The position numbers and the translations under genes were made by a program. The notes beneath the pieces were generated by a model. It made no database searches, was not told the origin of the DNA, and worked only from the letters and a program-made list of their open reading frames with translations. A DNA stretch of 64,000 nt from Oscillospiraceae bacterium. GTDB taxonomy: Bacteria; Bacillota; Clostridia; Oscillospirales; CAG-272. This document shows positions 50,221-64,000 of this stretch, piece by piece. Position 1 is the stretch's first letter; each line of letters starts with the position of its first letter. The stretch lies in assembly GCA_015063845.1 (NCBI GenBank), contig SVTJ01000004.1, positions 1-64,000 on the forward strand. The letters run 5' to 3'.

Positions 50221-52257
50221 ATGAAGATATTACTACTTACGGCATCCATGGATATTGGCGGAGCGGAGACACACGTATTTGAGCTTGCGTGCGCGCTGGC
50301 AAAAAAAGGAGACGTTGTCACGGTCGCTTCATCGGGGGGCAGACTTGCGCGGGAGCTTCCGAGGCGAGGGTGTGCGCATATAGCGTTGCCTCTTGATAAC
50401 CGCTCTTTTTTGTCACTTGTGAAAGCGAGATCGAGACTTGGAAAGCTTCTGAAAAAAGGCAATTTTGATATAGTACACGCTCATTCGCGAATAGCCGCTT
50501 TTTTAGCATACGGTGCCTGCCGAAGGTCAGGTATTCGTATGGTAACGACAATACACGCCCACTACCGAAAAAATTCATTACTCGACAGTTTATCAAGATG
50601 GGGAAGCGGTGTTATAGCGGTCAGCTACGATCTTTACAGACACGTTCGCAAAAACGGAAAACGCGTACCGATAGAAAACGTCTGTATAATACCGAACGGT
50701 ATTGATACCAAACGATTTTTGCCAATGGTAAAAAAAGAAAAAACGCTGGTAATAGCTTTTCTCAGCAGGCTTGACGCCGACTGTTCAAAAGTGGCTTTTG
50801 CGCTGTGTCGTATAGCCGAAAAGCTTGCCGTAAAATATGACGGCGTACAGATAAGGATCGGTGGTGGCGGCAGTGAATACGGGGCGGTCAAAAAGCTTGC
50901 TTATCAAGTAAATACAAGGGTTGGAAGGGAATTGATACGTGCACTCGGAGAGGTGGATGACACGGTCGGTTTCTTTCAAACCGCGGATGTTTTCGTGGGC
51001 GTTTCGCGCGCTGCGCTTGAGGCAATGTCTTGCGCTGTGCCGCTTGTCCTTGCGGGTGATGAGGGCTTTTTTGGCGTGCTTGACTTGGAAAATATTTCGG
51101 TGGCGGAAAGCACTAATTTTTGCTGCCGCGGCTCATCGTCCTTGACTGATGACGCATTGCTTTCGTCCTTGCTTGAGCTTTTAAAAATGACTTGCGACGA
51201 GCGAATAAAACTGGGAAATGAACTTAGAAAATACGTTGAGCGTACTCATTCCGTCGATGCTATGGCTGAGCGTACAAAGCGTTTTTATTGCGGCATAAGA
51301 AGTGTAAACAAGAGGTCTGACGGGGGGGTTTTGCTGTGCGGATATTATGGCTATGAGAATATGGGAGACGACCTTTTGCTTTTAAGCTCAGCAAGAAAAG
51401 CAAGGCAAAAAAATAGCGATATTACGGTATGCGTGCTGACCGACAAGGGGCGGTGCGACAACGATAGATTTTGTGAAAGATGCGCGCCGAGAAAAAACAT
51501 TTTTTGTGTTGTTTTCGAAATGACAAAAGCAGACACGGTGGTATTTGGCGGCGGAACTCTTCTGCAAAACGCCACGTCAAACCGCTCTCTTCTGTATTAT
51601 CTTTTTATTTTGCGTTGCGCTCAGATAATGGGCATAAGGACTGAGCTTTGGGGCAACGGTATCGGCGAGATAAAAGGGAATCTTTATAGGCGAGTGACGG
51701 CAAAAGCACTTGCTTGCTGTGCTTATGTTGGCGTGCGCGACAAGCTCTCGCTTGTTCGTGTCGCCCGTCTTTTGCAAGAGTACGGTCACACGCTTGGGTC
51801 TATCGAGTATACTCGTGATCTCGCCCTCGGATATTCAAGGGAAAATAGCTATATTGGCAAAATGCTACTGAGTGAGCTTGGCATTTTGCCAAACCAAAGA
51901 TTTGCCGTAGTCATAGTTCGCGGCAAGGAAGACGGTAGCGTTCGAAATGTGATGATATCGTTCTTAGACGGCTTGAAAAAATCGGGAATAAAGCTTGTTT
52001 TCGTTGCTATGTTTCCCGATGAGGATATGGAATTGTGTCGCCAGATAAGCGAGCAGCTTTCGGGAACTTTTGCGGAAAATCTTTCCCCGGGGGATCTGTT
52101 CGGACTAATAAAAAATGCATACGTTGTGTGCTCTATGCGCTATCACGGTCTCGTTCTCGCAGCAGATGCCGCAGTTCCGTTTGTGGGATTTGGAAAAGAG
52201 GAGAAAATTGCCGAGTTTTGCAAAGAAAACGGAGGAAAATTCATACAAGCGCAATAA
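50221..52257 (+). CDS. csaB: Fusion of GT4 glycosyltransferase and CsaB-type polysaccharide pyruvyltransferase
   Basis: This 678-residue protein has two parts. Residues 1 to about 365 are a GT-B glycosyltransferase: LLTASMDIGGAETHVFELAC, DIVHAHSRIAAFLA, PNGIDTKRFLP, FVGVSRAALEAMSCAVPLV. Residues about 375-678 match CsaB: LLCGYYGYENMGDDLLLLSS, VVFGGGTLLQNATSNRSLLY, YTRDLALGY and CSMRYHGLVLAADAAVPFVG. CsaB adds a pyruvyl ketal to secondary cell-wall polysaccharide, the anchor for SLH-domain surface proteins. The fusion would couple sugar addition with pyruvylation. A stop-free frame shows it is a real fusion and not two genes. The ribosome site is the weak AACGGGGA. Confidence 0.88.
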   Translation: MKILLLTASMDIGGAETHVFELACALAKKGDVVTVASSGGRLARELPRRGCAHIALPLDNRSFLSLVKARSRLGKLLKKGNFDIVHAHSRIAAFLAYGACRRSGIRMVTTIHAHYRKNSLLDSLSRWGSGVIAVSYDLYRHVRKNGKRVPIENVCIIPNGIDTKRFLPMVKKEKTLVIAFLSRLDADCSKVAFALCRIAEKLAVKYDGVQIRIGGGGSEYGAVKKLAYQVNTRVGRELIRALGEVDDTVGFFQTADVFVGVSRAALEAMSCAVPLVLAGDEGFFGVLDLENISVAESTNFCCRGSSSLTDDALLSSLLELLKMTCDERIKLGNELRKYVERTHSVDAMAERTKRFYCGIRSVNKRSDGGVLLCGYYGYENMGDDLLLLSSARKARQKNSDITVCVLTDKGRCDNDRFCERCAPRKNIFCVVFEMTKADTVVFGGGTLLQNATSNRSLLYYLFILRCAQIMGIRTELWGNGIGEIKGNLYRRVTAKALACCAYVGVRDKLSLVRVARLLQEYGHTLGSIEYTRDLALGYSRENSYIGKMLLSELGILPNQRFAVVIVRGKEDGSVRNVMISFLDGLKKSGIKLVFVAMFPDEDMELCRQISEQLSGTFAENLSPGDLFGLIKNAYVVCSMRYHGLVLAADAAVPFVGFGKEEKIAEFCKENGGKFIQAQ

Positions 52258-54740: not shown

Positions 54741-54769
54741 TTGACAAAAGTGTGATAGTGTGATATAAT
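54741..54769 (+). promoter_or_regulatory. Perfect-consensus promoter of the membrane/McrB-like operon
   Basis: TTGACA (54741-54746) and TATAAT (54764-54769) with a 17-base spacer match the full sigma-A consensus. A leader of about 100 bases follows, AT-rich, with an imperfect palindrome near 54782. No other promoter is evident before 62533, so all six genes are likely one transcript. Confidence 0.85.
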
Positions 54770-54873
54770 TTAAGATAACTGTTATTATATGATAATAGGT
54801 ATTTTTTGAATTGTTTTAGTGCGGATAAGAACGGTTTGTTCGCTTTCAGTATACGGTAAAAAGGAGATCGGAG

Positions 54874-56361
54874 ATGTCTTTTTCTATTTTGTCAATATTT
54901 GTGATAGCGGTTTTTGCTCTTTGCCTTGGCATAGAGATATATCGCGGTATCAATAGAGGTGTTCTTAAAACGCTCGTGTCCTTTGGCGCGCTTATAGTGA
55001 GTATAGTTCTTTCTGTTCTCATAGCGCCATTGCTTTCGGGTCTTTTTGTGGACGTAGCGTTCGATTTGTTCGGCAGAGAGCTTTTGCGAAACTTCAGTGC
55101 TCTCGCTTCTATTGCTGAGGTAGTGATCGCGATAATTACAAGTATAGTTCTGTTTTTGCTGGTGTTCTTTATCGTGCGCGCGATAGTTGCTCTTATTATA
55201 AAGAAAGTGTACAGTGCTAAAATACAAAAGCTTGCGGACGAACTTGACGATGAGGACCATGAGGATACGTGGTTAAAGCGAAACAGCAGAGTTGTCAGCG
55301 TCGTCGTAGGTTGTCTTTCGGCAATAGTGCTTACTATGACTATAACATCTCCGCTGCTCGGAATGCTCGATACTGCGCAGAACGTTATTGATTTTGCGGA
55401 AAGCGCAAGTCCCACTATGTTCTCTAACGATAATATGAAGGGGCTGAAGGAAGGGGTCGGTAAATATTCAAACGATGTCCCGGGAAAGGTATTTTACGGA
55501 ATGGGCGGTAAGCTCATATTCCGCTCCTATGCTTGTACGTTTAAGGACGGTGAAAGAATAGCGCTTATACGAGAGATAGAAATACTTGAGGAAGCGACAG
55601 AAAATCTGATGACGCTGATGCCCGTTATGAAAGGCGAGCAGGCTGCCGAGCAGAAGCATCTTGACAGTATTGACGAACTTTGTGATTGCGTTGAAAAAAT
55701 GAAGCTTGGGCGTAGGTTGCTCGCGACCTACATACCTCAAGGAACGCAAGCGTGGTTGGACGGTAATACGCTATTAGGCATAGCAAAGCCCAAGGTCAAT
55801 TCTTTGATAGATCCTACCTTTAACGAAATGCTGAGAGTGTGCGCGAGCTCTTCGGAATACAATATACAGCAAAACACCGTGACGCTTTTGCACGTGTACA
55901 GAATTTTTCTTGAGACAAAGGTGTTGGATATTCCCGAGGATGCTTCTTTTGATGAAGTGCTTGCATTCCTTGAGCAAGCGGGCATACTTGATAAGCTGAC
56001 CGAAGAGCTCAATACTAACCCGTATATGAGCAACGTAAAAAAGTGCGTTGACGATATTATGGTAGACGTTATTGCTGACCAGATCAATCTGCTGGAGTTT
56101 GGCGACGCGGCTTATTTGGGGCTTATGTCAAACATAGCGGACTCGATAAACACCGTAAACTCAAAGGGATATAAGACCGAGGAAGAGAAGAAGGCGGTAA
56201 TGACTTCTCTTACCAAGCAATACATCAAGGACTACGGACTTGACGTAAGCGACACAGCCGCTGAATATACAGCGGGAGTTATCCTGTCAAAATACGGTTC
56301 GTCGTCGGAAGAAATAACTCCTGAGCAAATACAGGATCTGTTTAACTCATACAATAACTAA
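54874..56361 (+). CDS. CvpA-like membrane protein with extracytoplasmic helical domain
   Basis: This 495-residue protein has four N-terminal membrane helices (about 3-22, 32-56, 84-112, 140-165). The turn GIEIYRGINRGVLKTLVSFG is typical of CvpA proteins. A charged cytoplasmic loop (DELDDEDHEDTWLKR) precedes helix four, and about 330 mostly helical residues follow outside. It resembles the 884-residue protein at 32107-34761 in layout and in one segment. AAGGAGA precedes the ATG. It is the first gene of the operon. Function unknown. Confidence 0.78.
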   Translation: MSFSILSIFVIAVFALCLGIEIYRGINRGVLKTLVSFGALIVSIVLSVLIAPLLSGLFVDVAFDLFGRELLRNFSALASIAEVVIAIITSIVLFLLVFFIVRAIVALIIKKVYSAKIQKLADELDDEDHEDTWLKRNSRVVSVVVGCLSAIVLTMTITSPLLGMLDTAQNVIDFAESASPTMFSNDNMKGLKEGVGKYSNDVPGKVFYGMGGKLIFRSYACTFKDGERIALIREIEILEEATENLMTLMPVMKGEQAAEQKHLDSIDELCDCVEKMKLGRRLLATYIPQGTQAWLDGNTLLGIAKPKVNSLIDPTFNEMLRVCASSSEYNIQQNTVTLLHVYRIFLETKVLDIPEDASFDEVLAFLEQAGILDKLTEELNTNPYMSNVKKCVDDIMVDVIADQINLLEFGDAAYLGLMSNIADSINTVNSKGYKTEEEKKAVMTSLTKQYIKDYGLDVSDTAAEYTAGVILSKYGSSSEEITPEQIQDLFNSYNN

Positions 56362-56373
56362 AAAGAGGAAGAT

Positions 56374-57078
56374 ATGGGAGCTTTAGATATAGGAATTACA
56401 TATTTTTTGAGCATACTTTTGCTCATCATATGCTTTATAGCTTACGTATTTCTCGTTGGCAGTGTTTTTCCGAAGCTGATACTGCGTCCGAAATGGGGAA
56501 ACGGAGTGACCAGAGACCGAGGAGTAAAGCGTTATAAATTCAAGGGCGGCAGAGCAGTTGTATACGAGCCCGATCCCAAGGTCAGAAAATACGTAATGCA
56601 GTATATCCTTTCCGAAAACAGCGGAAAGAAGTACGTTAAGTGCAAGGTGGATCCACGCGTCTCGACAATAAAATACGACGTAGTGGTGTACGATGCAAAA
56701 AGCAATGCCATAGACAATATCCATGTAGAGGAAGCAATAGCTACGAAGGGATACACAAGAGCGGCAGAGCTACCTGAAAAAACGTCTTATGTCTCACTTG
56801 TTGTCAGAGAAATCAATTATCACGAGATAGACAAAAGTCCGTTTGCCAGCTATAGCCTTGCACAAGTAATAACCTTTGCATCTTGCAACGTACTGTCAAC
56901 GGTCCTTCTCAGTCTGGTGCTGAGAGGAGCGATAAATAATACTCTTGATACGTTTTTCGATATGAGTATGGACGGTATAGGATTTTGCATCATAACCTCA
57001 ACGATTTTTGGGCTTATGAGCTCGGGACTTATATTTTTGTGTAACTATTCTAAGGGCGTTAGAATAACGCGCAAGTGA
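56374..57078 (+). CDS. Membrane protein with central soluble domain, unknown
   Basis: This 234-residue protein has an N-terminal helix (about 8-32), a soluble, probably beta-rich region of about 140 residues (VKRYKFKGGRAVVYEPDPK; KYDVVVYDAKSNAIDNIHVE), and two C-terminal helices (about 168-188 and 202-226). I do not recognise the family. It lies 12 bases after the CvpA-like gene with AGAGGAAG as ribosome site, so it is co-transcribed. The soluble part would lie between membrane segments and could bind a partner. Confidence 0.68.
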   Translation: MGALDIGITYFLSILLLIICFIAYVFLVGSVFPKLILRPKWGNGVTRDRGVKRYKFKGGRAVVYEPDPKVRKYVMQYILSENSGKKYVKCKVDPRVSTIKYDVVVYDAKSNAIDNIHVEEAIATKGYTRAAELPEKTSYVSLVVREINYHEIDKSPFASYSLAQVITFASCNVLSTVLLSLVLRGAINNTLDTFFDMSMDGIGFCIITSTIFGLMSSGLIFLCNYSKGVRITRK

Positions 57079-57120
57079 GATTTGCCGGTGGGGGAAGATG
57101 CCCACGGAAAGGAGATCTAA

Positions 57121-57768
57121 ATGGCTGATATATATCATCAGACTATCAAGGGAATATATCAATATCCCCAGATGAACGATTTTATATCGGTTAGAAATTA
57201 TATATTCACGTGGCAGAACGAGAAAAGATGCTTGTTGCTCAGATTTGTGAATAATTTCGACCAGGAGATAAATGAACTCGACTTTACGATAACACAGCTT
57301 GATGTTAACGGAAAGCCAATAAAGAGCGTTTCGGTAAATCATAAAAAGTTGAATATAAAGCCGGGTGCCCTTTACGTTCCGAACAAAGGAATTCTTGTCG
57401 AGGACGGTTGCGCGGACTTTAAGATAGCCTTTGACAAGGTGCGTTCGGGAGATTATACATACCGTGTTGTGGACAGACAGCTTGTGGCGTACTATCCCCA
57501 TCCCGAAAAGAAGTTCTTGGACGAGGGAGAGCAAAGACACGGTGAGATATATGGCTTTTACGAGGAAAGAAAGACAGTAGGCAGACCTAAGCTTGCGTAT
57601 ATCGTTGCTGTGCTGACGCTCGTTATGGTACTGTTGTTCAATATAGGATACGTGGTTGCGCCCATAATAGGCTTGGGAGATATCATCGCGGATATGTTCG
57701 AGAGTATTTTCGAGTTCGTCGTGGAATCGATAGAGATGTTCTTTAGCTTTATTGGCAACCTTTGGTAA
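57121..57768 (+). CDS. C-terminally membrane-anchored protein, unknown
   Basis: This 215-residue protein starts without a signal. Residues 1-150 look beta-rich (RNYIFTWQNEKRCLLLRFVN; ELDFTITQLDVNGKPIKSVS), like an immunoglobulin-type or carbohydrate-module fold. Two hydrophobic helices follow at about 157-182 and 188-214. GGAAAGGAG precedes the ATG. The soluble domain would face the cytoplasm. I do not recognise the family; its place in the operon suggests an accessory membrane subunit. Confidence 0.66.
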   Translation: MADIYHQTIKGIYQYPQMNDFISVRNYIFTWQNEKRCLLLRFVNNFDQEINELDFTITQLDVNGKPIKSVSVNHKKLNIKPGALYVPNKGILVEDGCADFKIAFDKVRSGDYTYRVVDRQLVAYYPHPEKKFLDEGEQRHGEIYGFYEERKTVGRPKLAYIVAVLTLVMVLLFNIGYVVAPIIGLGDIIADMFESIFEFVVESIEMFFSFIGNLW

Positions 57769-57789
57769 AAAACGTCGGGAGATCAAGAT

Positions 57790-60700
57790 ATGCTTAAATA
57801 TAAAAACATAATTGAACAGCTGTCCGATATGGACAAGGTGCGCATCTTGAGCGACGTTGACGAGCTTGGAAACGCGAAATACAGAACGCTCGGAATACCG
57901 GCTCTGAAGTTTGCAAGCTTTGAAGACTATTGCCACGGAACATATCCGTCTACGGTCGCTTTGATGAACACATGGGACACCTCGCTCATAGGGGACATAG
58001 CGGCTGATGTGGCGGGCAGAATGCGTGCTGACGGTGTGAGCGTTGCTGAGGTAAAAGGACCAAAGCCCAAAATAGACCCGTGCAGAGTAGCGCTGTCGGA
58101 AGACCCGTGGCTCGCATCTGTCGCTTGCTCGCAAATAGTGAGAGAGGTATATAACGGCGGAGTTAACGTTTCGCTCAGCGATTACGGTATTCGCACCACA
58201 GATACCAAGTGGCTTGATGCAGAGGTCAACGACAGATTTGTCAATGAATACATCATAAATCCCTTCAGCGTGTGTGCCGACAGTGCAAAGATCTGTGCGC
58301 TTGAAACAAGAGGAGACATTCTTGTTGAGGGATATCAAAAAATAAATTCCGCGCTTGAAAAGAAGGCGGAGATCGTTTGCGACGGCGCAAGGGCTATTTG
58401 CAGAGAGATGCCTACCGAAAAAACGGTCAAATATCTGCAAAACGGCGGAATGTTCTATAAGGGCTCTGCCGTGGCGCTTGAAGCTGCGCTACATAGATAC
58501 AATAACTTGTGTAAGGCAATAAAGCATAACACGTCGAGTGAGGAAGAACTCGAGGCGGAGATACAAAACGGAAGGGCAATATCCCCCGAAACTCTCGATG
58601 AGGCGGTAGACAAGCTGCTTGATTTTGCATTCTCTCTCAAACGCGATTGCGAGCAAGCCATGCCTGATGCCGATGCGTCTATTTCGTTAAGAGCCGCACG
58701 AGAGTCGATCGTGCTTCTTAAAAACGAGAAAAATATGCTTCCGCTCAAGAAAAAAGGCTATAAGGTCGCGCTTATAGGCGACTTGGTTATGGGCGAGGAT
58801 AATCTTTGGGAGAACTACGCAGAGGCTATTATGGATACCGATATGACCTTTGCGGGCGCTCGCAGAGGATACGATATCGACAAGGAGAGAAGTGAAGAGC
58901 TGACGGATGCTGCGCTCGAGCTTTGTAAGGATGCGGATATTGCGATAGTATTTCTCGGACTCGGAAAAAAGAGAGAAGCGTTTGCGACAAGATCAAAGAA
59001 AATATCTATTCCAGCAAACCAACAGCATCTCTTGCGAAAGCTTGAGAAATATGCATCAAAGGTGATAGTGGTGATAAGCGGAGATATCGCTCCCGATATC
59101 GTCTACTATAACAGCTGTTCTGCATTGCTGTACGCGCCCATAGATACGTCTTTGAGCGCAAGAGCTCTTATGGACGTGCTGAAGGGAAGCTTTAACCCGA
59201 CGGGAAGACTTGCGAATACCGTGTATTTTGATTCCGATGAGCTTTATGAGAACAGAAGAAAGCTTGTTTTGAAGGATAAGATAAAAACGGGACCGTTCTT
59301 TGGGTACAGACATTACGACGCTTATGAGATACAGGCGGGATACGTATTTGGATATGGACTTAGCTTTACGGAGTTTTCGTATTCCGAGCTTACCGTTGAC
59401 GGAATGGTGGCAAAGCTCAAGGTCAAGAACACGGGAAATGTTGCGGGTGTCGAGACCGTACAGATATACGTCGGAGTAAATGATTCAGCTATCGTCCGCC
59501 CGAGAAAAGAGCTTATGGGTTATGCGAGAGTAAGACTTGAAGCGGGCGAGGAGATAGACGTTAGCATACCGTTCGATATTCCTTATTTATATGACGGAAA
59601 AGATGGCGGTATATACGTTGAAAAGGGCGTGTACACGGTTTATGCCGGTGCATCTGTTTTGGATATACGCGCGGCTGCAAAGGTCAGCATCGGCGGAGCT
59701 GAGATAGAGCACAGTGGAGAGGTGCTCAGCGAATACGTACAAATTGAAAGTAACATTTTGTCTGATAAATACAAACTGGAGGAAGATTTTACAGTCATGA
59801 GAAGAAAGTCAGTATTTAATTTTATAGCGGGAGGCGTGTCGCTTGCGCTTGCGTTGGCTCTTAAGATGTATTGCCTTTTTGCCAACGTGGAAGCTATTTT
59901 CTTTGATCTGTTTGCAATAGCGCTCGGAATAGTCGGAATAACTTTCTTGGTGCTTGAGGCTGTTTATAGAAATAGAGAATACAAAGAGGACAAGGCAAAG
60001 CTTGACGAGGTAAATGCCGAAATGTTCAAGGATGCCGAGGAGATCCCGGTGTACGTTGCTGACAGAATGTTTATCAAGGAATTTGACGTTGCTGCCGAGG
60101 AAAAGGTCGTAGAGGTAGCAGACGCAGGTCTTGAGGGCGTAGACGCACAGTATCATCTTTATATCGATAGCGAGCAGTCGTTTGAGAATGCTGTTCGTGA
60201 GTTCGAATTGCTGGCTACCGAAAAGGGATTTAAATTTAATACAGAGACGGTCAGAGAACTTTTTGCTTCGATAGCATCGTCGAGACTTGTGTTCGTAAAA
60301 GGGCTTGACGAGGAGCATTTTAAGAACCTTTTGATATTGCTTGGCGGGTTTTTTGAAACAACGTCTCATTTTGATGTGGCGGACGACAGCTATGCAACCT
60401 ATGATAACGTACTCTTTAAAAAGAACGATCAGGGAGCGCGAATAAAGACAGACATCTGTCTTTCGTTTGATGCTGCCCGTAATACTCCCCAGAACATTCA
60501 TTTTGCAGGCCTTTACGGAGCTGCTCTTGAGAATTTTAATACCTACTTTGAGCCTTTCGTAAACTTTGCTAAGAATCCTTTGGGTGCTTGCAGAGTAACT
60601 GCTCTTAATGAGAGCTATACCGAAACGACTTACTACATTCCTCAGAACCTGTGGTTCATAGTTAATATTGGTGAAGACGAGCGTATAGATGCGCTTTCTC

Positions 60701-61155
60701 AGAATGTGCTCGATGTGGCTACCGTTACAAACGTAAGATTTGTTGAGTGTGAGAGCACGCCTCACCATGACGGTATCAAGAAGTTCAGCTATTATCAGCT
60801 TGATTATCTTACCGAAAAGCTTGGTGTATCTGCCGATGTGGACGAGGACGATTGGAAGAAGCTCGATAGACTTGAGGAGTACGTTGCGGCTCATACACAG
60901 TACAATATGGGTAACAAGATGTGGCTGTGCCTTGAAAAGTACGTTGCCGTATATCTTGCTTGCGCAGGTGACCGGGCAGAGGTGCTTGAAACAGCGGTCT
61001 GTTCAAAGATTTTGCCGTCCGTTGTAAGTGCTTTGAGCGGAAATATGGACAAGGAAGAAAAGTCTTTCTGTGTCGTACTTGAGGATATACTTGGTGAGGA
61101 CAGCGTCGATAAGTGCAAGGAATTTGTAAAGACGTCGCGCGCCGATATCGTATAA
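57790..61155 (+). CDS. Membrane-anchored, degenerate glycoside hydrolase family 3-like protein with C-terminal extra domain
   Basis: This 1,121-residue protein has no signal peptide. Residues 1-300 follow the GH3 barrel (DKVRILSDVDELGNAKYRTL; MNTWDTSLIGDIAADVAGRM; LSEDPWLASVACSQI), but the substrate-binding KH motif is replaced by SLSDYG and the usual nucleophile region is unclear. Residues 300-500 match the GH3 C-domain (AARESIVLLKNEKNMLPLKK; LKGSFNPTGRLANTVYFDSD; FGYGLSFTEFSYSELTV). An FnIII-like domain lies at about 537-637. Two membrane helices follow (about 677-700, 703-728), then about 390 soluble residues of unknown fold. Topology puts the GH3-like part inside the cell. It is probably inactive or altered. 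It sits directly before an AAA+ gene. Confidence 0.78.
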   Translation: MLKYKNIIEQLSDMDKVRILSDVDELGNAKYRTLGIPALKFASFEDYCHGTYPSTVALMNTWDTSLIGDIAADVAGRMRADGVSVAEVKGPKPKIDPCRVALSEDPWLASVACSQIVREVYNGGVNVSLSDYGIRTTDTKWLDAEVNDRFVNEYIINPFSVCADSAKICALETRGDILVEGYQKINSALEKKAEIVCDGARAICREMPTEKTVKYLQNGGMFYKGSAVALEAALHRYNNLCKAIKHNTSSEEELEAEIQNGRAISPETLDEAVDKLLDFAFSLKRDCEQAMPDADASISLRAARESIVLLKNEKNMLPLKKKGYKVALIGDLVMGEDNLWENYAEAIMDTDMTFAGARRGYDIDKERSEELTDAALELCKDADIAIVFLGLGKKREAFATRSKKISIPANQQHLLRKLEKYASKVIVVISGDIAPDIVYYNSCSALLYAPIDTSLSARALMDVLKGSFNPTGRLANTVYFDSDELYENRRKLVLKDKIKTGPFFGYRHYDAYEIQAGYVFGYGLSFTEFSYSELTVDGMVAKLKVKNTGNVAGVETVQIYVGVNDSAIVRPRKELMGYARVRLEAGEEIDVSIPFDIPYLYDGKDGGIYVEKGVYTVYAGASVLDIRAAAKVSIGGAEIEHSGEVLSEYVQIESNILSDKYKLEEDFTVMRRKSVFNFIAGGVSLALALALKMYCLFANVEAIFFDLFAIALGIVGITFLVLEAVYRNREYKEDKAKLDEVNAEMFKDAEEIPVYVADRMFIKEFDVAAEEKVVEVADAGLEGVDAQYHLYIDSEQSFENAVREFELLATEKGFKFNTETVRELFASIASSRLVFVKGLDEEHFKNLLILLGGFFETTSHFDVADDSYATYDNVLFKKNDQGARIKTDICLSFDAARNTPQNIHFAGLYGAALENFNTYFEPFVNFAKNPLGACRVTALNESYTETTYYIPQNLWFIVNIGEDERIDALSQNVLDVATVTNVRFVECESTPHHDGIKKFSYYQLDYLTEKLGVSADVDEDDWKKLDRLEEYVAAHTQYNMGNKMWLCLEKYVAVYLACAGDRAEVLETAVCSKILPSVVSALSGNMDKEEKSFCVVLEDILGEDSVDKCKEFVKTSRADIV

Positions 61156-61177
61156 GTTTTAAGAGGAGCAATACAAA

Positions 61178-62512
61178 ATGTTTGATATTCCAATGGTAAT
61201 AGAAACGGCGCTGAACGTTGCCGCCACAACACCTTTTGCGAAGTTTGTGGGAGCGATAACGTCGGGCTATGCAATAGCTATATACTTGATCGTGCTTCTT
61301 GTCATAATAGCGGCTATCATATTCGCTGTTATGATAGGCGGAAGCGATAAGCATAATGCCACTGTCTCCGCTCAGACCCCCATCGTAGTAAACGTAGGAA
61401 AAGAAGAAGAGGGAGAAGAAGCAGAGGAGAACGGCGAGAGATTTTGCATGCTATGCGAGATAGACCGCAGACAGCTGAGCTACGGACATAAGAGCTATGA
61501 TAAGAGCTTGACATTAAAGCTTTTGTGCGAGGAGTTCAGAAACTATGCGGCAGGAGAGCTGAAGCTTTATTACGACATAGAGGACATAAGAAGATTTATC
61601 GCAGGAATGGCGGTATCAAAGCTTATCATACTTCAGGGTATGTCGGGAACAGGAAAGACCTCGCTTGCTCACGCATACGGAATGTATATAGACAATATGT
61701 CAACGGTAATACCCGTACAGCCTATGTGGAAAGAAAGAACCGACCTTATAGGATATTATAACGAGTTTACCAAGAGATTTAACGAAACACTTTTGCTTGA
61801 GAAGATGTACGAGGCTAATTACAGCAAGGATATGTATATCACGGTGCTGGACGAGATGAACATAGCGAGAGTAGAGTATTACTTTGCAGAGTTTTTGTCA
61901 CTTCTCGAGCTTCCCAACGCAGAGCAGAGATATCTTGAGGTAGTATCGGATATGTGGGAGAGCGATCCTCAGAGCCTGAAGGACGGAAGAATAAAGCTTC
62001 CCGATAATATGTGGTTTATAGGAACGGCGAATAACGACGACTCGACGTTCGCAATATCCGATAAGGTGTACGATAGAGCAATGATACTCAACCTTGATAC
62101 TAAGTGTGAGAGATTTGCAGCACCCAAGACAGCTCGCAGACCCGTGTCAGCAGAGCAGTTCAACGAGCTTGTATCGATAGCGCTTAAGGAATATGAGATA
62201 AGCCGTAGAAACAGAAAGAGACTTGAGGCACTGGATAAGTACTTGATAGATCACTTCCACATAACGTTCGGAAACAGAATAATGAAGCAGATAAGACAGT
62301 ATATACCCGTATACGTAAGCTGCGGAGGAGACGAGCTCAAGGCACTTGACGATATACTGTCAAAGAAGATAATGAGAAAGCTTGAGACGCAGAACCCGAT
62401 ATATCTGAGGAATTCGGCAGAGGGACTTATTGCGTATATAGACGAGCTTTTCGGCGTCGATAAGATGCCGCTTTGTAAGGAGTATATCCATAGACTTCAG
62501 AGAAACGCGTAA
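61178..62512 (+). CDS. Membrane-anchored McrB-like AAA+ ATPase
   Basis: This 444-residue protein has one membrane helix (about 31-54) after a short N-terminus, an acidic linker (EEEGEEAEENGE), and a AAA+ domain in the C-terminal two thirds. Walker A is GMSGTGKTS near 154. Walker B and the following helix read TVLDEMNIARVEYYFAEFLS (Asp225-Glu226), the McrB/dynein-related signature. Sensor 1 is GTANNDDS (282-289), followed by SDKVYDRAMIL with the Arg finger. It differs from GTP-specific McrB, which has NTAD at this place, so nucleotide use is open. It is placed between the GH3-like gene and the DUF2357 gene, the same AAA+/DUF2357 order as in McrBC-type loci. Confidence 0.82.
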   Translation: MFDIPMVIETALNVAATTPFAKFVGAITSGYAIAIYLIVLLVIIAAIIFAVMIGGSDKHNATVSAQTPIVVNVGKEEEGEEAEENGERFCMLCEIDRRQLSYGHKSYDKSLTLKLLCEEFRNYAAGELKLYYDIEDIRRFIAGMAVSKLIILQGMSGTGKTSLAHAYGMYIDNMSTVIPVQPMWKERTDLIGYYNEFTKRFNETLLLEKMYEANYSKDMYITVLDEMNIARVEYYFAEFLSLLELPNAEQRYLEVVSDMWESDPQSLKDGRIKLPDNMWFIGTANNDDSTFAISDKVYDRAMILNLDTKCERFAAPKTARRPVSAEQFNELVSIALKEYEISRRNRKRLEALDKYLIDHFHITFGNRIMKQIRQYIPVYVSCGGDELKALDDILSKKIMRKLETQNPIYLRNSAEGLIAYIDELFGVDKMPLCKEYIHRLQRNA

Positions 62513-62532
62513 GATCGCAAAGGATTTAACAT

Positions 62533-64000
62533 ATGAACCAATTAGACGTTTTTTACCGTGCGTGGCTTGAATACCGCGCGGTAACCACGAAAAACCGAGA
62601 TTGCAGCTCACAGCGAAGAAATATTTCGCGTACCGATACAGAGAGTGAGACTCTTACTGTAATAAGAAACGTTTGCGACGTTGATGAGGACTGGATCTGC
62701 GAGATAGAAAAGGGCCTTGTTTACATTGAAAAGGCTATAAAGGAAGAAAGACAGTTCATATACTCAAACGGGGAAGTTCTGCCGATAGAAAAGGTAAAGC
62801 ACATATCCAAGGACTCCGTTCAACATCTTGCAAAGCACAGCAATCTTATCACGCGTGAGCAGGAGGGTGACGATATCATCCCCGATAAGCTTTACAGCGT
62901 GGAAAGACTCAATGATTACACTGTATATGAGAATAGATTCCTTTATATGCTCCTTTGCTATCTTAGGGATTTTGTAACTATCAGATACGATAAGATACTT
63001 GAGTTTTCAAATAAGTATGACGGCTCGCTTACTCTTAATAAAACTGTCGTTACCCCTTCGCAGAAAATATCGTATAGCATCGAGCTTCACGAGGAGCGCA
63101 ATAACGATAAGTATCTCAGAGACCATAACGAGGCGAAAGATATAATCGACCGTATGGACCTCATACTTAAGAGTGTGATCGCACTGCTTGCAACACCTCT
63201 TATGGAGGAGCAGGCAAAGGTCGCTATGCTCAAGCCGCCCATAACCAAGACCAACGTCCTTAAGATGGATAATAACTTCAAGGCAGCGGTCGCACTGTAT
63301 GAATACGTTGTTTCATACGATAAGGAGGGATACACGGTCGAGCCTCGAAATACCGACATTTCTCCGTTTGGAGACGATATCGGAGACGAGATAGCAGACG
63401 TTTGCTCTCTTATAAGCTTTTTGACTTATGAACACGGTCTTGATATAGAGGGAGTGCTCAAGAGCGAATATGAGCTTGAGCAGATAAGACGCAAGGAGCA
63501 AGAGATAGCTCAAAAGGCAGAACAGCTCAAAGCGCTAAGAAGAAAGCTTGATAACTCCGAGATGTCTTCCGAGGAGTATATCCTTGCTTTAGAGAAGCAA
63601 ATAAAGCTTATCAATAGCCATATGACGAGCGTTGATTCGTTGTGCCGCGATATAGCGGAGCTTAAGGCTTCTGAGAAGATGCTTAAGGAAACGGTCGAGC
63701 AAAGAGAGCAGGATATAGTTGCGCTTAACGAGGAGATGGCTGCTCGCGAGCTTAAGTATTTTGAGGATATCGAAAGGCTTAAGAGTGAGCATATTCAGCA
63801 GATCAATGAAATGTCCGCAAGACACGAGCAGGAAAAGCTCGAGCTCACTCAAAAGCACGAAGAGGAAAAGCAGGAGCTTATCGCAAAGAACAACGAGCGC
63901 ATAGCCGCTATGCAGAGCCGTATGGACGCGCAGAAAGAAATGGCGAACGAGCAGATCTCTGCGATCCAGGCAAAGCTGAACGAGAGCGAGGCACAAAACG
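62533..64000 (+). CDS. DUF2357/McrC-like protein with long coiled coil, cut by window edge
   Basis: The frame is open from ATG 62533 to the window end, at least 489 codons; the ribosome site is the weak AAAGGA. Residues 1 to about 300 match the DUF2357 N-domain: WICEIEKGLVYIEKAIKEER, HISKDSVQHLAKHSNLITRE, IIPDKLYSVERLNDYTVYEN and RFLYMLLCYL. From about 310 to the edge runs an unbroken heptad coiled coil rich in Glu, Lys, Gln and Ala. DUF2357 proteins often end in a PD-(D/E)XK nuclease and partner with McrB-like ATPases, as in coiled-coil nuclease tandems. The nuclease part, if any, lies beyond the window. No TM helix is visible so far. Confidence 0.78.
   Translation, partial: MNQLDVFYRAWLEYRAVTTKNRDCSSQRRNISRTDTESETLTVIRNVCDVDEDWICEIEKGLVYIEKAIKEERQFIYSNGEVLPIEKVKHISKDSVQHLAKHSNLITREQEGDDIIPDKLYSVERLNDYTVYENRFLYMLLCYLRDFVTIRYDKILEFSNKYDGSLTLNKTVVTPSQKISYSIELHEERNNDKYLRDHNEAKDIIDRMDLILKSVIALLATPLMEEQAKVAMLKPPITKTNVLKMDNNFKAAVALYEYVVSYDKEGYTVEPRNTDISPFGDDIGDEIADVCSLISFLTYEHGLDIEGVLKSEYELEQIRRKEQEIAQKAEQLKALRRKLDNSEMSSEEYILALEKQIKLINSHMTSVDSLCRDIAELKASEKMLKETVEQREQDIVALNEEMAARELKYFEDIERLKSEHIQQINEMSARHEQEKLELTQKHEEEKQELIAKNNERIAAMQSRMDAQKEMANEQISAIQAKLNESEAQN

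What the first reader, a model, noticed from the sequence alone, without database searches (positions are those of the whole stretch)
54741..64000. Six-gene membrane operon combining a GH3-like pseudo-hydrolase, a McrB-like AAA+ ATPase and a DUF2357 coiled-coil protein
One perfect-consensus promoter precedes six tightly spaced genes. They encode a CvpA-like membrane protein, two small membrane proteins, a membrane-anchored GH3-like protein, a membrane-anchored AAA+ of McrB type, and a DUF2357 protein with a very long coiled coil. AAA+ plus DUF2357 is the core of McrBC-like and coiled-coil-nuclease defence systems. Here four extra membrane parts and a cytoplasmic carbohydrate-enzyme-like module are attached. 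I know of no described system with this set. It could be an envelope-located defence system that senses modified glycans or nucleic acids, or a cell-envelope machine unrelated to defence.
Basis: partly seen in the sequence, partly recalled or inferred. Interest (0 to 1): 0.88.

Follow-up and report, generated by a model that had tools for sequence, protein, structure and literature searches.

The report
Membrane AAA+ machine for surface proteins
Gut bacteria carry a conserved set of genes that seems to build a motor in the cell membrane, made from relatives of a DNA-cutting defence enzyme but without the cutting part, and coupled to large proteins on the cell surface.

Summary
The six genes begin a nine-gene operon that runs past the window. 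Beyond 64000 lie the end of the DUF2357 protein (575 aa, no nuclease found), a second AAA+ gene, and two membrane-anchored transglutaminase/MBG-like surface proteins. The GH3-like protein has lost the usual nucleophile motif and ends in a degenerate AAA+ domain without Walker A. So there are one dead and two live AAA+ modules.

In 53 of 72 loci from a public genome scan, AAA+ 1, DUF2357 and AAA+ 2 are adjacent. AAA+ 1 has one predicted membrane helix and AAA+ 2 two or more in all 53. Yet their motor domains are at least 98% identical in DNA in 21 of the 53, which points to gene conversion. Of 48 modules with 3 kb downstream, 48 are followed by an anchored surface protein and 47 by one with a conserved cytoplasmic N-tail.

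Best reading: a McrBC-derived envelope machine that assembles or remodels surface proteins, not defence. Its nearest relative is CoCoPALM, named in print in a few sentences. Confidence is good for an envelope role, low for the exact mechanism.

The parts
54741..54769 (+). Perfect sigma-70-type promoter with extended TG before the first gene
   Evidence: 12 of 12 match, spacer 17; two perfect sites in 64 kb against 0.04 expected
54874..56361 (+). Gene 1 (cvp): 495 aa, about 5 predicted membrane helices in the first 160 aa, weakly CvpA/Colicin_V-like
   Evidence: Colicin_V E 1.8e-4, below cut-off; hydropathy; homologues in the same place in relatives
56374..57078 (+). Gene 2 (tmA): 234 aa, predicted membrane helices at about 1, 164 and 202
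   Evidence: no family match at cut-off
57121..57768 (+). Gene 3 (sB): 215 aa, one predicted membrane helix near 153; in some relatives fused to a giant BspA-type LRR protein
   Evidence: fusion with LRR_5 in L151, L152, L156
57790..59709 (+). Gene 4, N-terminal part: GH3-like fold (barrel, C domain, Fn3-like), nucleophile motif lost
   Evidence: GH3 structures, best E 2.4e-141 by profile and 5.1e-36 by model; nucleophile region of 31 sequences
59812..59949 (+). Gene 4, predicted transmembrane hairpin (residues about 675-720)
   Evidence: hydropathy; helices 675-698 and 703-745 in the model
60190..61131 (+). Gene 4, C-terminal part: degenerate AAA+ domain without Walker A or B
   Evidence: 59 bits, 20% identity to aaa1; profile-profile probability 100, E 8.8e-42, 323 columns; 0 of 52 homologues keep Walker A
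61178..62512 (+). Gene 5 (aaa1): 444 aa, one predicted membrane helix, active-type McrB-like AAA+ with GMSGTGKT, DEMN and GTANNDDS
   Evidence: motor domain nearly identical to aaa2 at contig 64278-65678
62533..64000 (+). Gene 6 (DUF2357 protein): continues to contig position 64260, 575 aa in all, N-terminal DUF2357 domain then a long coiled coil, no nuclease found

Best explanation
This is a McrBC-derived envelope machine. Two live AAA+ subunits (aaa1, one membrane helix; aaa2, a membrane hairpin) and the dead AAA+ domain of the GH3-like protein are anchored in the membrane with their AAA+ parts in the cytoplasm, and probably form a mixed ring. The DUF2357 protein would insert its conserved loop region into the ring and stimulate NTP hydrolysis, as McrC does for McrB; its long coiled coil would act as a lever or tether. 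The ring would act on the cytoplasmic tails or membrane helices of the two downstream surface proteins, above all the conserved N-tail of the second one. NTP-driven force would then assemble, activate or rearrange their large outer parts (MBG-type repeats and, in many species, a transglutaminase-like domain). The dead GH3 domain would serve as a cytoplasmic scaffold or ligand sensor. Shown by sequence: gene set, order, domain identities, lost motifs, predicted anchors, the constant surface-protein pair, and motor homogenisation. Inferred: ring formation, topology, the DUF2357 loop in the pore, action on the N-tails, and what the surface proteins do.
For: The AAA+ profile finds only McrB in the PDB, and 36 of 37 DUF2357-protein N-domains match PF09823 and no other Pfam family. 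AAA+ 1, DUF2357, AAA+ 2 are adjacent in 53 of 72 loci. AAA+ 1 has 1 predicted membrane helix and AAA+ 2 has 2 in 52 of 53, 1 and 3 in the other. A pseudo-AAA+ gene lies just upstream in 44 of 53. Walker A is present in 119 of 119 live and 0 of 52 dead domains. Of 48 modules with at least 3 kb downstream, 48 have within 600 bases the start of an open frame of at least 200 aa with a membrane helix near its start, 47 have the surface protein with the conserved N-tail, and 22 have a transglutaminase core. Cys and His of the transglutaminase are present in all 15 distinct cores aligned, which were picked by likeness to this operon's own. The most conserved part of the DUF2357 protein (R73 to N134) falls partly in a loop that the monomer model leaves unsettled, as expected of a part ordered only on binding. 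McrC works by a DUF2357 stalk that activates McrB in hexamers (PMC11090510, passages). NorQD, another AAA+ pair, works by a finger in the ring pore (PMC13036017, abstract and passages). Relatives in the same genus (L035, L037) carry SipW-type signal peptidases, and L035 a giant LRR surface protein.
Against: No direct test of ring formation, hydrolysis or interaction. The DUF2357 model has no PDB match below E 0.19 and McrC is not among the 50 of 297 matches shown; the profile search of the PDB gave mostly coiled coils and no McrC among the 60 of 162 shown; so the McrC link rests on the Pfam match. The transglutaminase core was not found in 26 of 48 modules, so it cannot be the universal function. 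Nine of 53 modules have no recognised pseudo-AAA+ next to them. Some loci have one AAA+ and no DUF2357 (L144, L145, L154, L182; L126), so DUF2357 may be dispensable, unless these are assembly collapses. The defence-candidate profile PDC-M26A hits aaa1 at 4e-46. Two divergent GH3-like relatives (L049, L050) keep more of the nucleophile motif, with an acidic residue at or next to the place.
Confidence: 0.6

Rival explanations
1. Anti-phage defence: a McrBC/CoCoNuT-like or PDC-M26-like system placed in the envelope, which senses invading nucleic acid or injection and acts through the AAA+/DUF2357 pair, with the surface proteins or GH3 module as effector or sensor.
For: McrB-like AAA+ plus DUF2357 is the McrBC core. 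PADLOC profile PDC-M26A matches aaa1 at E 4.1e-46. The DUF2357 protein of L152 has a weak match to DpdB (5.8e-5). Distribution within the genus is patchy: 15 of 40 genomes, own included, match aaa1, many of them incomplete. AAA+ relatives under 60% identity occur on 265 plasmid records and 2 phage records, none covering 80% of aaa1.
Against: No nuclease recognised in the DUF2357 protein or the operon; the CoCoNuT paper says that CoCoNuTs with a missing or dead McrC nuclease are always next to another nuclease (PMC11090510 section 7). PDC-M26A also matches AAA+ proteins of quite different loci at 2e-45 and 3e-35, so it marks the AAA+ family, not a system. PADLOC lists nothing for genes 2, 3, 4, the DUF2357 N-domain and tg1, and only a weak match (E 0.019) for gene 1. 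The constant partner is a pair of surface proteins (47 of 48). A pattern scan of viral contigs gave no confirmed relative.
Confidence: 0.12
2. A MoxR-like chaperone operon: the AAA+ proteins only fold or activate the transglutaminase proteins, like the aaa-atp/duf58/tgm genes of the bifidobacterial PFNA cluster, without a force-transmitting machine.
For: Same theme of AAA+ plus membrane transglutaminase plus Fn3-type part (PFNA: PMC8430577, abstract and passages). 22 of 48 modules keep a transglutaminase core.
Against: The AAA+ is McrB-type by profile, with DUF2357 instead of DUF58; no transglutaminase core was found in 26 of 48 modules; both AAA+ genes carry predicted membrane anchors in 53 of 53.
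Confidence: 0.2
3. The nearly identical AAA+ copies act as a recombination switch that loops out the DUF2357 gene, so the machine is switched between DUF2357-plus and DUF2357-minus states.
For: In this genome the copies share a 966-base identical run and flank only the DUF2357 gene. Single-AAA+ loci with the transglutaminase gene next and no DUF2357 exist: L144, L145, L154, L182, L126. G016 and G516 have no DUF2357 relative in their assemblies. Contig L172 runs DUF2357 end, AAA+, DUF2357 start, as a circle would.
Against: Most cases are draft metagenome assemblies, where such repeats can be collapsed. In one search, 8 of 10 genomes lacked DUF2357, six of them with the operon contig ending at or in aaa1, so absence from a draft says little. 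In 30 of 53 modules the copies are at most 77.2% identical and could not recombine easily. No reads were available.
Confidence: 0.15
4. The GH3-like protein is a working cytoplasmic glycosidase and the operon is a carbohydrate-use operon with incidental neighbours.
For: Clear GH3 fold. The window protein has a lone Asp near the nucleophile place, and L049 and L050 keep more of the motif.
Against: The motif VVSDW of 7ms2 is not seen in the matching region of any of the 31 aligned sequences, though the alignment there is loose. The domain is fused to a pseudo-AAA+ domain, and the operon holds AAA+, DUF2357 and surface proteins.
Confidence: 0.03

Closest known systems
[quoted passage not shown] PMC11090510, section 7 and passages read)
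   Same: Membrane-anchored McrB-like AAA+, DUF2357 protein with coiled coil, link to surface proteins. CoCoPALM-like sets are present in the same genus (L035, L036, L037, L124): AAA+ of L035-L037 41-48% identical to aaa1, SipW-type signal peptidases in L035 and L037, LRR giant in L035.
   Different: Here two AAA+ genes with different anchors, a pseudo-AAA+ subunit fused to dead GH3, no FtsB-like coiled coil seen on the AAA+, no signal peptidase found in the operon, and transglutaminase/MBG surface proteins. In the AAA+ tree the CoCoPALM-like rows form a separate branch (98/95). No accessory gene of one set is convincingly homologous to the other (best probability 27%).
McrBC (type IV restriction)
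   Same: McrB-type AAA+ and the DUF2357 domain of McrC
   Different: No PD-(D/E)XK nuclease or DNA-binding domain recognised, membrane anchors, surface proteins
CoCoNuT systems
   Same: McrB-like AAA+ and DUF2357 with long coiled coil
   Different: No nuclease, helicase, Hsp70-like or RNA-binding part recognised; anchored in the membrane; no coiled coil seen on the AAA+
Bifidobacterial PFNA cluster (pkb2, fn3, aaa-atp, duf58, tgm)
   Same: AAA+ plus membrane transglutaminase and Fn3-type part in one gene cluster
   Different: MoxR-type AAA+ with DUF58 there; McrB-type AAA+ with DUF2357 here
PADLOC candidate PDC-M26A
   Same: AAA+ domain matches the profile at 4e-46
   Different: The profile is 724 aa; the AAA+ of L041 (838 aa, many predicted membrane helices) matches it equally well (2e-45), and the rest of this operon has no good PADLOC match

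Membership tests
CoCoPALM | McrB-like AAA+ with the NxD signature | tested here: inconclusive
   Motif is N-N-D-D (GTANNDDS in 111 of 119), which can be read as NxD followed by D or as NxxD; the ungapped match to McrB does not decide
CoCoPALM | AAA+ fused to an FtsB-like part (membrane helix plus coiled coil) | tested here: not met
   aaa1 has one predicted helix and aaa2 two, followed by a linker without visible heptads (by eye, no coiled-coil program run); L035-L037 show a helix plus heptad-like stretch (by eye)
CoCoPALM | McrC/DUF2357 homologue with coiled coil | tested here: met
CoCoPALM | Signal peptidase family protein in the operon | tested here: not met
   No S26 match in the nine genes; present in L035 and L037
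McrBC | DUF2357 protein carries a PD-(D/E)XK nuclease | tested here: not met
   575 aa protein ends after the coiled coil and a short tail; no nuclease match
McrBC | McrB-type AAA+ domain | tested here: met
   PDB hits only McrB, best E 9.4e-6; NCBIfam best match McrB, E 4.9e-5 but far below its cut-off
CoCoNuT | Associated nuclease (McrC nuclease, HEPN or other) | tested here: not met
   none recognised in the nine genes by Pfam or, for eight proteins, PADLOC
GH3 glycosidase | GH3 fold | tested here: met
GH3 glycosidase | Catalytic nucleophile Asp in its motif | tested here: not met
   Motif not seen in the nucleophile region of 31 aligned homologues; alignment there is loose, and L049/L050 keep more of it
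AAA+ ATPase (C-terminal domain of the GH3-like protein) | Walker A and Walker B | tested here: not met
   0 of 52 have Walker A; Walker B also replaced in the profile alignment; fold homologous, E 8.8e-42
PDC-M26 defence candidate | Anti-phage activity | not testable with these tools
   Profile match only; the name PDC-M26 occurs in none of the 15 papers listed of 18 found
Transglutaminase-like superfamily (tg1, tg2) | Transglut_core domain with Cys-His | tested here: met
   75.7 and 78.3 bits; Cys and His in all 15 distinct cores aligned, third residue Glu or Asp

The most novel reading that the evidence does not exclude
A new kind of envelope motor: a mixed AAA+ ring of one dead and two live subunits, where the two live subunits have the same motor but opposite membrane topologies (one N-out helix, one N-in hairpin). 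The motor is kept identical by gene conversion, driven by a McrC-type stalk, and pulls or twists on the cytoplasmic tails of two giant surface proteins to build or move a surface structure. The identical motor genes may double as a recombination switch for the stalk gene.
Probability: 0.25. Interest if true: 0.9.

Novelty: new variant of a known kind. Interest (0 to 1): 0.74.

Why it matters
McrBC relatives are usually filed as defence. This operon and its relatives show a branch that appears to have left nucleic acids and gone to work at the cell surface, in uncultured Clostridia, Lachnospiraceae, Erysipelotrichaceae and Mycoplasmatota (record titles, lineages; that Mycoplasmatota lack a cell wall is recalled). 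It gives CoCoPALM-like systems a better-defined cousin with a fixed substrate candidate (the conserved N-tail), which makes the open question of what these machines do testable. The dead GH3/dead AAA+ fusion, and the twin motors with fixed, different anchors but homogenised sequence, are unusual in themselves. It also warns that a defence-candidate profile (PDC-M26A) matches such envelope operons.

Tried and rejected
Nuclease at the end of the DUF2357 protein: looked for beyond the window, not found. GH3 as active enzyme: thought unlikely on the nucleophile region (but see L049 and L050). The idea that aaa2 is a recent local duplication was rejected because the anchor difference is kept in 53 of 53 modules and the copies group by position in 11 of 27 loci of the tree. 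Full-length GH3 search over the order returned mostly ordinary GH3 enzymes (183 of 295 genomes; among the listed matches only G000 and G288 run end to end). Phylum search with the DUF2357 profile returned 67 of 398, but all listed matches except the own genome start at profile position 294 or later, the coiled coil, so it is no measure of spread. Plasmid search: 265 records match, all under 60% identity and none covering 80% of aaa1; phages: 2 partial matches. PDB sequence search with the DUF2357 profile: the 60 shown of 162 are mostly coiled-coil or other long-helix chains, no McrC; Foldseek gave nothing significant. Homology between CoCoPALM accessory genes and genes 1-3 or the surface tails: none convincing. 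A strict Walker B pattern (19 of 119) was too narrow; DEMN is present in 101 of 119.

Limits. The tree used 20 of the 53 modules plus the own genome and six. Most genomes are draft metagenome assemblies. Membrane helices come from a simple hydropathy rule, not a dedicated predictor.
Full report
Where it is. The window is the first 64,000 bases of contig 7 of a 1.88-Mb draft genome; the contig is 125,685 bases long. I fetched the contig on to 84000, listed its open frames to 74000 and mapped the rest coarsely.

Observation. All six genes exist as described. The promoter is a perfect match with an extended TG; chance gives about 0.04 such sites per window and there are two. The operon does not end at 64000: it continues with the end of the DUF2357 gene (575 aa), a second AAA+ gene (contig 64278-65678) and two long genes with an N-terminal membrane helix and a transglutaminase core (75.7 and 78.3 bits), with AgI_II_C2 repeats (42 bits in the second, just below cut-off in the first) and a weak MBG match. 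A GC-rich hairpin followed by a T run comes right after the last gene (sequence, by eye). So there are nine genes between one strong promoter and a likely terminator, ending at contig position 72513.

The GH3-like protein. Its first 640 residues are GH3-like by profile and by predicted structure (mean pLDDT 86.6; best Foldseek E 5.1e-36). The nucleophile motif is not seen in 31 aligned homologues, in a loosely aligned region; two divergent relatives outside that set, L049 and L050, keep more of it. After a membrane hairpin comes a domain that Pfam does not see but that is homologous to the AAA+ of the same operon: 20% identity, 59 bits, and profile against profile probability 100, E 8.8e-42 over 323 columns. 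Walker A and B are gone. Walker A is present in 119 of 119 live AAA+ proteins and 0 of 52 of these domains. So the protein is a likely pseudo-glycosidase joined to a pseudo-ATPase.

Twin motors. In this genome aaa1 and aaa2 share a 966-base identical run covering most of the motor, while their N-terminal anchors differ. The same holds in four others of the seven genomes examined there: 96-100% DNA identity in most motor windows within a genome (longest identical run 220 to 1059 bases), 62-75% protein identity between genomes; in the other two, G421 and G382, the copies are 52-55% identical in protein. In the named genomes, of 53 modules the last 1080 bases of the two copies are at least 98% identical in 21, 94.0% and 82.5% in 2, and at most 77.2% in 30. 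The anchor difference is constant: aaa1 one predicted helix and aaa2 two in 52 of 53, one and three in the other. In a tree of 27 aaa1 and 27 aaa2 motors plus 10 outsiders, the two copies of one locus are sisters in 16 of 27 loci and group by position in 11. Identity at DNA level, not only protein level, points to gene conversion. Contig breaks agree: 15 of the 43 loci mapped are contigs cut inside aaa1, where a near-identical repeat would stop an assembler, and short contigs hold mainly the middle (L039, L146, L147, L149, L153).

Spread. In the genus, 8 of 30 genomes match the DUF2357 protein, own included, but only G319 and G017 closely. In the family, 20 of 295 genomes drawn show a near-whole match to the membrane-hairpin and pseudo-AAA+ part; 86 of 295 match at all, many only by their AAA+.

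What travels together. Of the 72, 53 hold AAA+, DUF2357, AAA+ in a row. Just upstream of these 53, one search counts a GH3-fused pseudo-AAA+ in 29 and a pseudo-AAA+ not labelled GH3 in 15 (L195 among these is a GH3 gene cut by the contig end, so 30 and 14). None is adjacent in 9: L203, and eight others of which seven have at least 6.9 kb of upstream sequence in view; three of these (L183, L187, L197) have a seven-helix protein there instead. Downstream, 48 modules have at least 3 kb of sequence. In all 48 an open frame of at least 200 aa with a membrane helix near its start begins within 600 bases, and 47 have the second surface protein with the conserved N-tail (Y..Y..K-type pattern, then a basic stretch and helix). 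Eighteen of the 48 supplied, or are the same contig as, sequences of the 25-row tail model; of the other 30, 29 match, and the miss (L178) has only 59 bases left after the first surface gene. A transglutaminase core is found in 22 of 48. Of nine first or second surface proteins without it that I scanned, two reach a cut-off for YDG or AgI_II_C2 repeats (L165, L204), five show such repeats or MBG below cut-off, and two show nothing. So the surface pair is the constant partner, and the enzyme domain is optional.

Variation. All nine genes in order: G000, G319 (L122), G565 (L139, same contig as L155, last gene cut by the end of the stretch) and SIG631 (L148). Nine of the 72 loci have no DUF2357. 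In four of these the transglutaminase gene follows a single AAA+ (L144, same contig as L033; L145; L154; L182); in L150, L156 and L198 the contig ends at the AAA+; L173 and L176 were not resolved. L126 is a further single-AAA+ case. G016 and G516 have no DUF2357 relative in the assembly, but neither have six genomes whose operon contig ends at or in aaa1. These may be real losses or assembly collapses.

Relation to known systems. The AAA+ profile finds only McrB in the PDB, and 36 of 37 DUF2357-protein N-domains match PF09823. The McrC link is at family level; the model itself has no significant PDB match. The CoCoNuT paper (PMC11090510; section 7 and passages read) names, in a few sentences, CoCoPALM systems: AAA+ with an FtsB-like helix and coiled coil, coiled-coil McrC homologue, signal peptidase and pilus assembly. 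The same genus as the window carries CoCoPALM-like loci (L035, L036, L037, L124), with SipW-type signal peptidases in the two that I scanned, L035 and L037 (E 2e-19 to 8e-27), and in L035 a 1788-aa LRR protein. They form a separate AAA+ branch (98/95) and share only AAA+ and DUF2357 with the present operon. The present operon fails two CoCoPALM features (FtsB-like coiled coil, signal peptidase), so I call it a relative, not a member.

Not defence, most likely. No nuclease recognised, no strong PADLOC match beyond the AAA+ family profile PDC-M26A, no confirmed relative in the viral-contig scan, and a fixed surface-protein partner. Against this: AAA+ relatives under 60% identity sit on 265 plasmid and 2 phage records. 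Direct tests are lacking.

Mechanism. McrC activates McrB in hexamers through its DUF2357 stalk (passages), and NorQD shows an AAA+ ring turning a finger in its pore to strain a partner (PMC13036017, abstract and passages). By analogy the DUF2357 protein would be stalk and lever of a membrane ring of aaa1, aaa2 and the pseudo-AAA+ domain, acting on the N-tails of the surface proteins. This is inference.

In print? Searches: DUF2357 with McrB and coiled-coil (2 records, one work and its preprint), transglutaminase with DUF2357 (0), CoCoPALM (10 records; only the CoCoNuT paper and its preprint fit by title), McrB/transglutaminase/AAA+/membrane/surface protein (10 of 13 listed), McrBC/CoCoNuT/pilus assembly (10 of 28 listed), GH3/AAA+/transglutaminase/operon (8 of 12 listed). 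None of the listings shows this operon by title or abstract. Most subscription papers and all supplements were out of reach.

Noticed in passing
L035, L036, L037, L124 (relatives of the same genus): CoCoPALM-like loci: AAA+ with helix and heptad-like stretch, DUF2357 protein, SipW-type signal peptidases (L035, L037 scanned), several small proteins whose first helix ends in AWF or SWF like SipW-dependent substrates (one weak TIGR04088 match, below cut-off), and in L035 an LRR giant. They look like a surface-fibre module.
   Followed up: partly
L040:2066-12160: Another AAA+/DUF2357 set: AAA+ with four predicted helices, short DUF2357 protein (20.2 bits, below cut-off), ABC ATPase, polytopic protein and two anchored proteins.
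   Followed up: no
L151:1226-6604, L152:701-6757, L156:1495-6402: The small gene 3 (sB) is fused to a giant BspA-type LRR protein (LRR_5 up to 743 bits) in these relatives.
   Followed up: partly
L172:2-3008: 3-kb Acholeplasmatales contig in the order DUF2357 end, AAA+, DUF2357 start: the loop expected of a repeat in the assembly graph, or of an excised circle.
   Followed up: no
L002:18059-19501 (contig 72558-74000), minus strand: Convergent gene right after the operon that reads by eye as a BspA-like leucine-rich repeat protein; not scanned.
   Followed up: no
window 35536: A second perfect TTGACA-TATAAT promoter in the window.
   Followed up: no
window 50221-52257: Glycosyltransferase-like part followed by a polysaccharide pyruvyl transferase-like part in one open frame, by eye, upstream of the operon.
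   Followed up: no
L041, L042, L043: AAA+ proteins of 796-838 aa with at least six predicted membrane helices next to a DUF2357-like protein; L041 matches PDC-M26A at 2e-45.
   Followed up: partly
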